Part shown: piece by piece, positions 58,860-61,524 of the stretch
How positions within the stretch are numbered: the stretch's first letter is position 1
How the letters are laid out: every line of letters begins with the position of its first letter
Source of the DNA: Anaerobaca lacustris
Lineage (GTDB): Bacteria > Planctomycetota > Phycisphaerae > Sedimentisphaerales > Anaerobacaceae
Reading direction: 5' to 3'
Assembly (NCBI RefSeq): GCF_030012215.1
Contig: NZ_JASCXX010000003.1
Coordinates: 1-64,000, forward strand
DNA: 64,000 nt
The notes under the pieces: generated by a model
Seen by the model: the letters and a program-made list of their open reading frames with translations, nothing else
Told to the model about the DNA's origin: nothing
The model's database searches: none
Made by a program: the position numbers and the translations under genes

Positions 58860-58867
58860 CATTCTTC
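58860..58867. repeat. Left 8-bp target-site duplication
   Basis: CATTCTTC directly precedes the left inverted repeat and recurs directly after the right one at 61517-61524. An 8-base duplication is the length made by IS1-type transposases. Confidence 0.95.
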
Positions 58868-58884
58868 GGTAGTGGGTCAGTTTG
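58868..58884 (+). repeat. Left terminal inverted repeat
   Basis: GGTAGTGGGTCAGTTTG, perfect complement of 61500-61516. The first passenger ORF starts two bases inside it. Confidence 0.95.
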
Positions 58885-58886
58885 AA

Positions 58887-59027
58887 ATGGAGAATTTTTA
58901 CGGCCAGATCGAAGAACCCGTGCGGGCGCTGGTGAAGCTGTTGCGAGACAATGGATTCAACGCCACATGTTCATGCGGACATCTGCCGGTCCCTTATGTC
59001 CAGATGGACTGGATAATGGACTTTTGA
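58887..59027 (+). CDS. 46-residue ORF at the left end of the transposon
   Basis: A 46-residue frame beginning MENFYGQIEEPVRALVKLL, with Cys residues in TCSCGHLP. It starts two bases inside the left inverted repeat, so it has no upstream ribosome site within the element. The sequence has the look of a folded-protein N-terminus cut short at WIMDF, so it is probably a truncated captured gene. I do not recognise a family. It is listed because the composition is coding-like and the frame ends cleanly. The stretch 59028-59146 shows no further gene. Confidence 0.4.
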   Translation: MENFYGQIEEPVRALVKLLRDNGFNATCSCGHLPVPYVQMDWIMDF

Positions 59028-59146
59028 AATGCCATGTATAGATCCCTTCCCTGTCTCTGTCAGTTTCATCGGCAGCTAAGGGGCGACAACTTCACCATTT
59101 CTCCAAGTATTTGTGCGTATTTGTGACTTTTCGTGTCGCAGGCTCT

Positions 59147-59176
59147 TTGACAAGTGAATGCGGAATCGACTATAGT
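59147..59176 (+). promoter_or_regulatory. Sigma-70 promoter P1 in transposon
   Basis: TTGACA (59147-59152) and TATAGT (59171-59176) with an 18-base spacer; start expected near 59183, about 70 bases before the first cargo gene. It is the strongest host-like promoter in the window. Confidence 0.65.
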
Positions 59177-59195
59177 CTTGGCCGTTCGTATATGC

Positions 59196-59207
59196 TTGAG
59201 CGGTCAA
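59196..59207 (+). promoter_or_regulatory. Operator-like motif TTGAGCGGTCAA, copy 1
   Basis: TTGAGCGGTCAA with symmetric TTGA/TCAA ends (13 bases identical including the preceding C) lies between P1 and P2 and recurs at 60628-60639 inside the transposase promoter. Two copies at two promoters of one element suggest a shared regulator. Confidence 0.45.
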
Positions 59208-59216
59208 AGATTAAAG

Positions 59217-59244
59217 TTGACAGAACATTTAACCGATGTATAGT
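59217..59244 (+). promoter_or_regulatory. Sigma-70 promoter P2 in transposon
   Basis: TTGACA (59217-59222), 16-base spacer, TATAGT (59239-59244). The expected start is at or next to the ATG at 59251, so this promoter would give a leaderless or nearly leaderless mRNA for the first cargo gene. Confidence 0.6.
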
Positions 59245-59250
59245 GGAGCT

Positions 59251-59517
59251 ATGGCAAATAAGCGTAAGAAACGTGCGGATGTGAACGAGCTTGCCAAGTC
59301 CATTGTAGATCAAATCACGGACGAACAATTGCAGGAAAAGGCTCGCGAGGAAGGCAAGAATCCCGCCGCCGTCATGCTCGGGAGGCTCGGAGGCCTCAAA
59401 GGTGGTAAGGCACGGGCTCAGAAGCTGTCCGCTGAACGTCGAAGCGAGATAGCCAAAAAGGCTGCCGAGAGTAGGTGGGAAAGACATGGCGAGGAAGAAA
59501 GCAGTAAAGAAGGTTAG
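59251..59517 (+). CDS. Small basic Gly/Lys-rich protein (transposon cargo)
   Basis: An 88-residue highly charged protein. Its middle, MLGRLGGLKGGKARAQKL followed by SAERRSEIAKKAAESRWE, is a pattern seen in small proteins of many bacteria and phage-like regions, often next to unrelated genes; the N-terminal half is a polar helix. Net charge is positive and nucleic-acid binding is plausible but not shown. The ATG at 59251 has GGAG close by and lies at the expected start of promoter P2. It overlaps the protease gene by 32 bases in another frame. Confidence 0.7.
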   Translation: MANKRKKRADVNELAKSIVDQITDEQLQEKAREEGKNPAAVMLGRLGGLKGGKARAQKLSAERRSEIAKKAAESRWERHGEEESSKEG

Positions 59518-60424
59518 CGGAAAGGCTCCTTCTCCAAAGAAGCGGAAGGCAGAGTTTTACTCAAGCAGTCCCTACGCCGGAGTGGCATTCTGCCAATGTA
59601 TCCAAGAACTTGAAGAGGCAACCAAATTGCCTGTTGTCCTGCTATGTCACGGTGGAGACGCTAAGGACCCGTACGCTTATTTCAATGACCTCACATATGA
59701 AGTGTTCGCCAGGAATATAAGGCGCCTTGAAAGAGGCAAACCGGTTCAGGTGGTGATTGATTCTCCGGGTGGCGATGCACGTTGTGCATATAAATTGGCA
59801 TCTCTACTTCGGAAGCATTGTGGGCATTTCTTTGCCGTGGTTCCGCATTACGCCAAGAGCGCTGCCACCCTATTCGCCCTCGGCGCAGACACGATTGTGA
59901 TGAGTCGGTTTGCTGAATTGGGACCTCTTGACGTTCAAATAGAATATACGGACAAAGAGGAGCGATTTTCTGGTTTAGAAGTAGTACAGGCGGTTGAACG
60001 ACTCAATGGCGAAGCCATGCGGGCCTTGGATCAACAAATGGTGTTTTGGTTGATGCGCTCTCGCAAGAAACTCGATACACTACTTCCGGTAGTGACGCAC
60101 TTTGTATCAGAAATGATGCGGCCATTGTTTGAGAGAATCGACACGGTGAACTATACCGCTATGGCTCGGGCTCTCAAGGTGGCACAAGATTACGCAGAAC
60201 GACTTCTTGAGGCCACAGGATTAGGAACTAAACAGGCTAAAGAGATCGCGGAAAGGCTGACCACGGCGTATTCGGAGCATGGTTATGTCCTTGATTGCGA
60301 GGAATTGAACCGAATTGGAATGGGCAACGTACAGGAGGCAACCGGAGAAGCAGGAAGCATTCTTGAGCGGCTGGCTTTCTTGGAACGAGGCTCTACCATG
60401 TTGGGTCCTCTAAAGGAGGTATAG
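59486..60424 (+). CDS. SDH-type Clp-fold serine protease (transposon cargo)
   Basis: A 312-residue protein of the serine dehydrogenase proteinase (SDH_sah, ClpP/crotonase fold) family. The oxyanion strand is VVIDSPGGDARCAYKLA near 90, the likely nucleophile is Ser125 in YAKSAATLFALGAD, and SRFAELGPLDVQIEY near 145 matches the family's acidic position. A basic Lys-rich tail of 20 residues opens the protein; there is no signal or membrane helix, so it is probably cytosolic. Family members with known biochemistry are archaeal. Its start overlaps the small basic gene, so expression is coupled. Role in the transposon is unknown. Confidence 0.82.
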   Translation: MARKKAVKKVSGKAPSPKKRKAEFYSSSPYAGVAFCQCIQELEEATKLPVVLLCHGGDAKDPYAYFNDLTYEVFARNIRRLERGKPVQVVIDSPGGDARCAYKLASLLRKHCGHFFAVVPHYAKSAATLFALGADTIVMSRFAELGPLDVQIEYTDKEERFSGLEVVQAVERLNGEAMRALDQQMVFWLMRSRKKLDTLLPVVTHFVSEMMRPLFERIDTVNYTAMARALKVAQDYAERLLEATGLGTKQAKEIAERLTTAYSEHGYVLDCEELNRIGMGNVQEATGEAGSILERLAFLERGSTMLGPLKEV

Positions 60425-60426
60425 GT

Positions 60427-60594
60427 ATGGGCAAACCAGTTAAGCATATTGAGTGCGTGAGAGCACCGATGATAGAACAGGCAATCAACGCCACAAATTG
60501 GGACAAGACCTCTACATGGGAGACATTAGCATCAAAGGCGGCCGGAGAATCCTGCCCGCAAAAGAAACCCCAGAAGGACCCCAAGAAAAAATAA
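60427..60594 (+). CDS. 55-residue protein (transposon cargo)
   Basis: A 55-residue ORF, too short for usual gene calls, starting MGKPVKHIECVRAPMIEQ. A perfect AAAGGAGGT lies six bases before the ATG, at the very end of the protease gene, which makes translation very likely. The C-terminus is a Lys/Pro-rich tail (QKKPQKDPKKK). I do not recognise a family. The 2-base gap to the protease stop implies a protease partner or regulator. Confidence 0.65.
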   Translation: MGKPVKHIECVRAPMIEQAINATNWDKTSTWETLASKAAGESCPQKKPQKDPKKK

Positions 60595-60617
60595 TGAGGT
60601 GATACCCAATTCTTGAC

Positions 60618-60646
60618 TTGACTTTTCTTGAGCGGTCAAGCATAAT
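60618..60646 (+). promoter_or_regulatory. Transposase promoter with embedded operator-like motif
   Basis: TTGACT (60618-60623) and CATAAT (60641-60646) are separated by exactly 17 bases. The spacer contains TTGAGCGGTCAA (60628-60639), copy 2 of the motif at 59196. A protein bound there would block polymerase. The expected start falls next to the ATG at 60654, again giving a leaderless or nearly leaderless mRNA. Confidence 0.6.
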
Positions 60647-60653
60647 GGTCAGT

Positions 60654-61496
60654 ATGAATAAGCTGACCAGAGAAAAACGTGTGCGTGTCATAGCGGCCCT
60701 GGTAGAGGGAAATTCTATCCGCGCCACAGTCCGCATGACGGGAGTAGCCAAGAACACGGTCTCCAAACTCCTGTGCGACATCGGCCAAGCCTGCGAACGC
60801 TATCATGACAGAGTCATGGCAGACTTGCCCTGCAAACGGCTTCAAGTTGACGAGATTTGGAGCTTCTGCTACGCCAAGCAAAAGAACGTCCCCGAGCCTC
60901 TAAAGGGTACGTTCGGCTATGGCGACGTCTGGACATGGGTAGCCATTGACGCAGATACTAAGCTCGTTCCGCAGTGGCTCGTTGGTCTACGAACAGCAGA
61001 ATGGGCCGATGCCTTCATAGGGGACTTGGCTTATCGCCTCAAGAACCGTGTGCAGCTTACCAGCGACGGCCTCAAGGTCTATTTGAATGCAGTAGAGGAA
61101 GTGTTCGGGGGTGAGGTTGACTACGCCACATTGGTCAAGATCTATGGCAGCGAGAAAAGTCCGGAAGAACCGATAACGACTCACAAGTACAGTCCAGGTC
61201 AAGTGACTGGATGCCAGTTGACAGTCATTCAGGGCAAGCCCGACCCGCGTCACATCTCCACGTCTTATGTGGAGCGGCAAAATCTGACTATGAGAATGTC
61301 CATGCGACGGTTCACCCGACTAACAAACGGATTCAGCAAGAAGGTAGAGAATCTAAGCTATGCCGTTGCGCTGCACTTCGTTCACTATAACTTTTGCCGG
61401 ATTCATCAATCACTGCGAATGACGCCTGCGATGAAGGCAAAAGTAACCGATCACCTTTGGGACCTGGACGAATTGGTTGATCTTATCGACCAATGA
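60654..61496 (+). CDS. IS1-like DDE transposase
   Basis: A 280-residue transposase. Residues 1-45 form a helix-turn-helix (RVIAALVEGNSIRATVRMTGVAKNTVSKLL), followed by the catalytic core with a candidate DDE triad Asp66 (VDEIWSF), Asp138 (TSDGLK) and Glu207 (SYVERQN). The C-terminus contains HFVHYNFCRIHQSLRMTPAM, common to IS1 and IS3-like enzymes. The start at 60654 agrees with the promoter; ATG 60645 would add three residues. The stop lies three bases before the right inverted repeat. No programmed frameshift is needed, unlike E. coli IS1. Confidence 0.88.
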   Translation: MNKLTREKRVRVIAALVEGNSIRATVRMTGVAKNTVSKLLCDIGQACERYHDRVMADLPCKRLQVDEIWSFCYAKQKNVPEPLKGTFGYGDVWTWVAIDADTKLVPQWLVGLRTAEWADAFIGDLAYRLKNRVQLTSDGLKVYLNAVEEVFGGEVDYATLVKIYGSEKSPEEPITTHKYSPGQVTGCQLTVIQGKPDPRHISTSYVERQNLTMRMSMRRFTRLTNGFSKKVENLSYAVALHFVHYNFCRIHQSLRMTPAMKAKVTDHLWDLDELVDLIDQ

Positions 61497-61499
61497 GGC

Positions 61500-61516
61500 C
61501 AAACTGACCCACTACC
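61500..61516 (-). repeat. Right terminal inverted repeat
   Basis: CAAACTGACCCACTACC, perfect complement of 58868-58884, three bases after the transposase stop. Confidence 0.95.
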
Positions 61517-61524
61517 CATTCTTC
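61517..61524. repeat. Right 8-bp target-site duplication
   Basis: CATTCTTC, identical to 58860-58867. Removing the element and one copy restores a continuous intergenic sequence. Confidence 0.95.

What the first reader, a model, noticed from the sequence alone, without database searches (positions are those of the whole stretch)
58860..61524. Complete IS1-like transposon carrying a protease and three small proteins
Seen directly: perfect 17-bp inverted repeats, perfect 8-bp target duplication, DDE transposase ending three bases from the right repeat, and about 1.7 kb of passenger genes on the same strand with lower GC than the flanks. IS1-family elements are normally under 1.7 kb and carry only transposase. 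A protease-bearing IS1 relative could be an unnoticed class of passenger-carrying element.
Basis: partly seen in the sequence, partly recalled or inferred. Interest (0 to 1): 0.85.

Follow-up and report, generated by a model that had tools for sequence, protein, structure and literature searches.

The report
Cargo-swapping IS1-like transposon with protease
This is a complete small jumping gene of bacteria that carries a protease, and it belongs to a widespread family of such elements that mostly keep the same two core genes but swap the cargo between them, including toxin systems, DNA-modifying enzymes and proteases.

Summary
A 2,649-bp element (58868-61516) has perfect 17-bp ends, an 8-bp target duplication (CATTCTTC), a DDE transposase three bases from the right end and low GC. 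It is single-copy here, and a same-genus genome shows the empty site.

Extra genes are the rule in a clade of distant IS1 relatives: I delimited 50 elements (this one included) with both ends and a target duplication, 1.9-4.8 kb, none transposase-only, in 11 named phyla. The usual plan is left end, kgg (small basic protein), variable cargo, tnp, right end. A KGG profile hits inside elements at 45 of 49 loci and nowhere in 545 kb of flanks. The protease (ClpP/SppA fold, SDH type) is one of many cargoes; others include HigB/XRE-ImmA, P63C proteins and methyltransferases. On the transposase tree, cargo type changes about as often as in shuffles, so cargo seems to be exchanged. kgg and tnp share a palindrome; tnp often has a leaderless-looking promoter.

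Best reading: a unit transposon with an exchangeable slot for addiction- or defence-type modules, filled here by a protease. The protease's role is a guess. "Transporter IS" elements are known; I found no description of this family in the papers held.

The parts
58860..58867 (.). left copy of 8-bp target duplication CATTCTTC
   Evidence: empty site in G393
58868..58884 (+). left terminal inverted repeat GGTAGTGGGTCAGTTTG
   Evidence: 17 of 17 with the right end; similar ends in the relatives
58887..59027 (+). 46-codon ORF; not supported as a gene
   Evidence: no Pfam or NCBIfam match; tblastn finds only itself in the 20 regions
59192..59211 (+). palindromic operator-like copy upstream of kgg (ATGCTTGAnCGnTCAAGCAT, 2 mismatches)
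   Evidence: (pair I2); family-wide test
59217..59244 (+). sigma70-like promoter of kgg: TTGACA-N16-TATAGT, start codon 6 nt after the -10 box
   Evidence: read by eye; not tested statistically
59251..59517 (+). kgg: 88-aa basic protein (GGLKGGKARAxKL...EIAxKAAxxRW), recurrent core gene of the family
   Evidence: AlphaFold three helices. In plasmid CP050295.1 the gene in this position is annotated 'histone H1' (not aligned by me)
59486..60424 (+). cargo: 312-aa SDH-type ClpP/SppA-fold serine protease; starts 32 nt inside kgg
   Evidence: PF01972 E 3.4e-21; fold match SppA, 1510-N, ClpP; Ser125 conserved; overlap
60427..60594 (+). 55-aa ORF with a lysine-rich tail between protease and tnp; short ORFs in the same place in L062, L124, L072 and L175, none in L098 and L105, no sequence similarity shown
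60618..60646 (+). tnp promoter TTGACT-N17-CATAAT; ATG 7 nt after the -10 box (leaderless-looking)
   Evidence: reading; family-wide
60624..60643 (+). palindromic operator-like site in the tnp promoter spacer (2 mismatches to the motif)
60654..61496 (+). tnp: 280-aa single-ORF DDE transposase, distant IS1 relative
   Evidence: D65, D137, E206, counted without Met1, invariant in 12 of 12; assignment as DDE triad recalled
61500..61516 (-). right terminal inverted repeat
61517..61524 (.). right copy of target duplication

Best explanation
It is a unit transposon of an IS1-related family whose usual plan is: left repeat, kgg, exchangeable cargo slot, tnp, right repeat. Supported by comparison: the ends, the 8-bp duplication, the empty site, kgg as a recurrent core gene, a palindrome shared by the kgg and tnp control regions, and the lack of fit between cargo and the transposase tree. 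Inferred: the transposase acts at the ends by DDE chemistry; the palindrome represses both core genes, most likely through KGG, the only other recurrent protein, so that a burst of tnp follows entry into a new cell; the tnp mRNA is leaderless, which would help expression in very different hosts; cargo is replaced by recombination between elements that share the tnp module and often kgg. The slot is filled by modules that favour keeping the element: HigB/XRE-ImmA, SocA-type antitoxin, PIN, DNA methyltransferases, P63C proteins, and here a ClpP/SppA-fold protease read with kgg. My committed guess for the protease is a maintenance or regulatory module (turnover of KGG or of a host or phage protein), not a digestive enzyme. 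Confidence in anatomy and family about 0.9, in cargo exchange about 0.8, in the maintenance role of the protease about 0.35.
For: Ends and target duplication in 50 of 101 transposase matches examined, 49 with an exact 8-bp duplication, 1862-4779 bp, median 2,780. Plan. kgg: profile hits inside elements at 45 of 49 loci, 0 in 544,644 bp of flanks; 56 of 60 loci with at least 2.5 kb upstream of tnp, either strand. Palindrome with at most 4 of 18 mismatches: 23 of 50 tnp regions, 23 of 40 kgg regions, 4 sites in the remaining 132,670 bp, 1.0 expected in all in shuffles. tnp promoter with -10 box 3-12 nt from the ATG: 27 of 47, 3.8 expected; gap 6 or 7 nt in 22 of the 27. Cargo against tree: 33 changes over five labels in 65 transposases, shuffled mean 35.0, as low in 45 of 200. 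Cargo identities. HExxH in 14 of 14 XRE-ImmA cargoes. SDH: PF01972 above its cut-off, ClpP/SppA fold, serine motif in all six SDH elements of the delimited set. A same-family sister element has the order kgg-SDH-small ORF-tnp (G410, L175 4123-6835, TSD GACAACTA).
Against: A separate plus-strand kgg was labelled in 40 of the 50 elements; in the rest the profile hit is weak, on the other strand, fused to P63C, or absent. The KGG profile was built from the same elements, so only the flank control is independent. The palindrome was read off these tnp regions first, so its tnp count is partly circular, and in several elements it overlaps the first codons of kgg (MPKRS), where coding could conserve it; at tnp it is below threshold in 27 of 50. 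25 of the 50 elements carry cargo left in 'other', and 15 of 30 cargo proteins scanned had no Pfam match at E 0.01 and 4 only weak ones below cut-off, so 'maintenance cargo' rests on about half. KGG as repressor is a guess by elimination; its model (pTM 0.39) matched no solved fold. Tree: quick method, 34 of 62 inner branches under 80, well-supported branches force only 2 SDH changes; 13 of the 65 rows were added because their cargo was recognisable although their ends were not located. Most loci are metagenome bins. The window is single-copy, so present activity is not shown. No function was tested.
Confidence: 0.75

Rival explanations
1. A transporter IS in the published sense: an IS1-related element that caught neutral passenger genes by chance, with no functional link between cargo and transposition.
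For: The concept is in print (passages of PMC3129680 and PMC9330008). Cargo is diverse and decoupled from the transposase; 15 of 30 cargo proteins scanned have no Pfam match at E 0.01.
Against: One gene, kgg, recurs and shares a palindrome with tnp; the identified cargo is skewed to toxin-antitoxin, methyltransferase, P63C and protease genes, though no host background was computed; the SDH label needs 7 changes over 8 rows on the tree, at least 2 on well-supported branches, which suggests repeated recruitment.
Confidence: 0.3
2. The protease is a regulator of transposition itself: it degrades KGG or the transposase, in the way ImmA-type proteases cut repressors of mobile elements.
For: SDH starts inside kgg in the window, L062, L098 and L124, and 6 nt after it in L105 (94 nt after it in L072). 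The other large cargo class also encodes a protease motif, HExxH in 14 of 14. The ImmA analogy is recalled, no call.
Against: 44 of the 50 delimited elements lack SDH, and most of them keep kgg and tnp. At five same-family loci a long SDH frame is kept while tnp is truncated or gone, so its retention does not depend on transposition.
Confidence: 0.25
3. The protease is a host-beneficial or anti-phage gene that the element carries along.
For: Long open SDH frames at five same-family loci with broken or missing transposase; sister elements carry methyltransferase and PIN genes.
Against: PADLOC finds no defence match for the four window proteins tested; five element SDHs are only 20-32% identical to the window's, and of 42 SDH loci held only 6 have kgg within about 1.5 kb, most being other chromosomal SDH genes.
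Confidence: 0.2
4. Misreading: chance repeats around ordinary chromosomal genes.
For: Single copy in this genome.
Against: Empty site, a sister element with its own ends and target duplication in the same family, 49 other delimited elements.
Confidence: 0.01

Closest known systems
Transporter IS (tIS): IS copies with passenger genes (passages of PMC3129680 and PMC9330008 read; the primary IS1595 paper was not looked up and not read)
   Same: IS-type ends and a single transposase with passenger genes unrelated to transposition
   Different: Here extra genes are present in all 50 delimited elements, one accessory gene (kgg) recurs, two control regions share a palindrome, and the cargo differs between close transposases
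IS1 family, including longer single-ORF members (recalled as the ISMhu11 group; that name is in none of the held papers)
   Same: DDE transposase of distant IS1 type, ends starting GG, 8-bp duplications
   Different: Below the curated IS1 cut-offs, single ORF beginning at the HTH, 1.9-4.8 kb with cargo
Tn3-family transposons with toxin-antitoxin modules (PMC7157771; abstract and sections 8 and 16 read)
   Same: Several unrelated TA types acquired and exchanged at one position next to the transposition genes; proposed role in stabilising the transposon
   Different: Tn3 elements have resolvase and res; no resolvase was seen among the window proteins or the 30 cargo proteins scanned; the recurrent neighbour here is kgg, and the slot also takes proteases, methyltransferases and P63C proteins
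SDH-type ClpP-like serine proteinases (PF01972, NF047768)
   Same: Domain, serine motif, fold
   Different: Scores far below the NCBIfam equivalog cut-off (86.3 of 250); lies inside a transposon, overlapping kgg

Membership tests
IS1 family | transposase matches curated IS1 models | tested here: inconclusive
   NCBIfam 48.3 bits (cut-off 100), Pfam 23.6 (cut-off 24.1); still the best matches
IS1 family | 8- or 9-bp target duplication (range recalled) | tested here: met
   8 bp here; 49 exact in the 50 delimited elements, which were selected for it
IS1 family | terminal repeats beginning GG (recalled) | tested here: met
   GGTAGTGGGTCAGTTTG; my search required GG, so the family-wide figure is not independent
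IS1 family | two overlapping ORFs joined by frameshift, under about 1.2 kb (recalled) | tested here: not met
   single 280-aa ORF, element 2,649 bp
Transporter IS | IS ends and transposase plus passenger genes unrelated to transposition | tested here: met
   that the genes are unrelated to transposition is inferred
Transporter IS | transposase-only relatives exist with the same ends | tested here: inconclusive
   none in 50; one 1,350-bp candidate without target duplication, L103
Tn3-type TA transposon | resolvase gene and res site | tested here: not met
   no resolvase match among the five window proteins; a res site was not searched for
SDH-type ClpP-like protease | PF01972 domain above gathering score | tested here: met
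   76 bits, cut-off 31.3
SDH-type ClpP-like protease | equivalog NF047768 cut-off | tested here: not met
   86.3 bits, cut-off 250
SDH-type ClpP-like protease | catalytic serine in the SxA/SxG motif | tested here: met
   S125 invariant in alignments A2 and A4; role as nucleophile recalled
SDH-type ClpP-like protease | proteolytic activity | not testable with these tools
   needs purified protein

The most novel reading that the evidence does not exclude
A so far undescribed, multi-phylum family of very small unit transposons in which an IS1-type transposase and a dedicated KGG regulator, tied by a shared palindromic operator and expressed from leaderless mRNA, form a fixed chassis with one plug-in slot; unrelated addiction, defence and protease modules are swapped through that slot by recombination between elements, and proteases (SDH and ImmA types) were recruited repeatedly because they couple element loss or transposition to cell fate.
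Probability: 0.4. Interest if true: 0.8.

Novelty: new variant of a known kind. Interest (0 to 1): 0.6.

Why it matters
Passenger-carrying IS elements are known, but mostly as single cases. Here a whole clade, delimited in 11 named phyla, looks built to carry cargo, with a recurrent accessory gene whose counterpart on one plasmid is annotated 'histone H1'. That makes the family easy to recognise (ends like GGTAGTGnnnCAnTTTGA, kgg, tnp), lets potentially hundreds of short cargo modules be delimited exactly (490 relatives in one capped scan), and offers a way to find new toxin-antitoxin, defence or protease systems by what sits in the slot. It also gives a comparison with Tn3-borne toxin-antitoxin modules for the open question of whether such genes stabilise the transposon itself.

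Tried and rejected
Defence-system membership: PADLOC gave nothing for four window proteins. Solved relatives by sequence: only three chance-level hits for SDH, none for KGG; the KGG model had one match at E 9.9. The idea that the terminal repeat is mimicked before the tnp start codon (GGTCAGT-ATGAA) fits the window and several relatives but not others (read by eye, not counted), so I dropped it. SDH as a single inherited cargo: not favoured, 7 changes over 8 rows, at least 2 on well-supported branches. Transposase-only ends in nine distant relatives (L018, L020, L021, L022, L023, L024, L025, L027, L030): no ends with target duplication in the stretches held; L018 has 16 of 18 end matches at about 2.07 kb without duplication. 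The phage collection has one distant relative. Nine paper searches showed no title or abstract describing this family; I read listings only for these apart from passages of two papers and parts of a third; most subscription journals are not held.

Rows dropped before counts: all pairs with under 13 of 18 end matches or more than one target-duplication mismatch, 51 of 101 matches; three of these (L070, L103, L143) stayed in the tables and were left out of counts of 50. Three of the 50 had no ATG by my rule and were left out of the 47. L138 was called SDH on a minus-strand match of E 1e-32 only. L120 and L125 are near-copies and both stayed in the tree. The label 'HigBA' means the XRE-ImmA C8 protein; HigB itself was labelled in 7 of those 10 delimited elements. 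Cargo names rest on Pfam scans of 30 representative proteins.
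Full report
What is there. The window holds a complete element of 2,649 bp at 58868-61516 with perfect 17-bp terminal repeats and an 8-bp duplication CATTCTTC on either side. Gene order on the + strand is kgg (59251-59517), an SDH-type protease (59486-60424, starting 32 nt inside kgg), a 55-aa ORF (60427-60594) and the transposase (60654-61496), whose stop lies three bases from the right repeat. The 46-codon ORF next to the left end has no relative in the regions searched. GC is 0.504 inside and 0.616 in the flanks; across the 50 delimited elements 45 have lower GC than their flanks. 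The genome has one copy. In a same-genus genome (G393) the joined flanks align with no gap at the junction (989 columns, 76% identity, about 109 bp of it to the right, target octamer diverged), which is the expected empty site.

What family it belongs to. The transposase is a distant IS1 relative, below the curated cut-offs of both libraries but with IS1 as best match. From 101 transposase matches in these 80 loci, 20 same-phylum regions and the window, 50 elements could be delimited with at least 13 of 18 end matches and an 8-bp duplication with at most one mismatch, 49 of them exact; lengths run from 1,862 to 4,779 bp, median 2,780. Of the other 51 matches some are cut by contig ends and others have no recognisable partner end. 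None of the 50 is transposase-only: the shortest distance from left end to tnp is 0.98 kb (L109). A 1,350-bp structure with perfect 18-bp ends, one 73-codon ORF besides tnp and no duplication (L103) comes closest. Some are isolates or plasmids (Mesorhizobium, Mycobacterium interjectum, Methylosinus), most are metagenome bins. In the plasmid collection 17 of 72,556 records have a match, 7 over at least 80% of the protein.

The fixed chassis. The usual order is left end, kgg, cargo, tnp, right end. A separate plus-strand kgg was labelled in 40 of 50 elements. A KGG profile, built from these elements, hits inside elements at 45 of 49 loci and nowhere in 544,644 bp of flanks of the same loci. Of 60 loci with at least 2.5 kb upstream of tnp, 56 have a hit on either strand, some weak, on the minus strand or fused. 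On a Mesorhizobium plasmid the gene in this position is annotated 'histone H1' (not aligned by me). AlphaFold gives three helices (mean pLDDT 79.6, pTM 0.39) and no solved structure matches. P63C-type cargo proteins carry a KGG-like stretch of their own (seen in L160 and L147).

Control regions. A palindrome ATGCTTGAnCGnTCAAGCAT lies in the tnp promoter and at or just before the start of kgg. With at most 4 of 18 mismatches it is in 23 of 50 tnp regions (90 bp) and 23 of 40 kgg regions (170 bp), 19 elements having both, and in 4 places in the remaining 132,670 bp; shuffles give 1.0 in total. The motif was read off the tnp regions first, so that count is partly circular; the kgg count and the rest of the sequence are the fairer contrast, though some kgg sites overlap its first codons. 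In the window the copies start at 59192 and 60624. A sigma70-like promoter whose -10 box ends 3-12 nt before the tnp ATG is found in 27 of 47 elements (3.8 expected), with a gap of 6 or 7 nt in 22 of these 27; 9 of 47 have a Shine-Dalgarno-like string (no control made). This points to leaderless mRNA in part of the family. The regulator is unknown; KGG is my guess because it is the only other recurrent protein.

The slot. In the 50 delimited elements the cargo is SDH protease in 6, the XRE-ImmA type that goes with HigB in 10 (HigB itself labelled in 7), a second XRE-ImmA type in 4, P63C in 5, and other in 25. Of 30 representative cargo proteins scanned with Pfam, 11 match above a curated cut-off (HigB toxin, XRE plus M78 peptidase, SDH, P63C, N4/N6 methyltransferase fused to HNH, N6 methyltransferase, PIN, SocA-type antitoxin, HTH), 4 only weakly and 15 not at all at E 0.01. 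All 14 XRE-ImmA proteins keep HExxH. On a quick tree of 65 transposases five cargo labels need 33 changes, shuffled mean 35.0, as low in 45 of 200 shuffles; SDH needs 7 changes over 8 rows, of which well-supported branches force 2. So cargo fits the transposase tree no better than chance, which I read as exchange. In the 40 best-matching element pairs, DNA similarity between elements with different cargo is mostly confined to the tnp module, starting near its promoter. In 13 of 19 elements whose next gene after kgg is convergent, the two stop codons overlap by 4 nt, across three unrelated cargo types.

The protease. PF01972 is matched above its cut-off. The model (mean pLDDT 66) matches SppA, the stomatin-specific protease 1510-N and ClpP. 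The serine of the SxA/SxG motif is kept in the aligned element SDHs. Five element SDHs are only 20-32% identical to the window's, and of 42 SDH loci held from the phylum and family searches only 6 have kgg near, so SDH genes are common and were probably caught several times. The closest full sister is in the same family (G410, L175 4123-6835, 2,713 bp, kgg-SDH-small ORF-tnp, TSD GACAACTA). Five further same-family loci keep a kgg match (shortened in L174) and an open SDH frame (304, 247, 304, 324 and 306 codons in L174, L176, L178, L220, L221) while tnp is truncated in three and not found in two; left-type ends with 1 to 4 mismatches remain in four of the five, and no matching right end was found. 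This hints that SDH is useful to the host or hard to lose, and argues against a role in transposition only.

How it most likely works. Supported: an insertion with duplication, a recurrent two-gene core with a shared palindrome, and a variable slot. Inferred: DDE transposition, repression through the palindrome, leaderless expression, and a maintenance or regulatory role of the slot genes. The nearest published idea is that toxin-antitoxin pairs of Tn3 transposons stabilise the transposon (PMC7157771, abstract and sections 8 and 16 read). The protease would be another answer to the same need. This last step is a guess at about 0.35.

Novelty. IS elements with passenger genes ('transporter IS') are known (PMC3129680, PMC9330008, passages read). 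A longer single-ORF IS1 subgroup is recalled, but no held paper names it. I found no description of the kgg gene, the shared palindrome or the cargo exchange in the search listings; ISfinder and subscription papers were out of reach. I rate it a new variant of a known kind.

Noticed in passing
L063 (minus strand, elements of 4,275 and 2,037 bp) and L175 4123-6861: Two elements stand in tandem with the same 8-bp target copy (CCATTACA three times in L063); in L175 the right end and GACAACTA are followed at once by another left-type end (GGTAGTGTCCTAATTTGA). Insertion beside an existing element may be favoured.
   Followed up: partly
L174, L176, L178, L220, L221: Same-family loci with truncated or missing transposase keep a kgg match and an open protease frame.
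   Followed up: partly
L160:6807-7958:-, L147:6797-7936:+: P63C-domain cargo proteins carry a KGG-like segment near their N-terminus, as if kgg had been fused to cargo.
   Followed up: no
kgg/cargo junction in 13 of 19 delimited elements with a convergent next gene: The convergent cargo gene ends exactly at the kgg stop, sharing 4 nt (YTAR, CTAG in 7 of 13), in three unrelated cargo types; may mark the exchange point.
   Followed up: partly
ON529850.1 174791-175663: Brevundimonas phage vB_BpoS-Gurke has a distant relative of the transposase with no annotated feature there (33% identity over the full query).
   Followed up: no
target duplications of 51 elements: First base is C or G in 44 of 51 and position 6 is G in 25 of 51; a weak target preference, not tested against background.
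   Followed up: no
L168 729-3475: In the genome with the empty site, about 2.7 kb of other DNA lies between the two homologous flanks, starting about 109 bp right of the junction.
   Followed up: no
G450 (genome of L111): One Bryobacterales genome holds six transposases of this kind at E below 1e-30, 35-64% identical to the window's, so several lineages coexist in one host.
   Followed up: no
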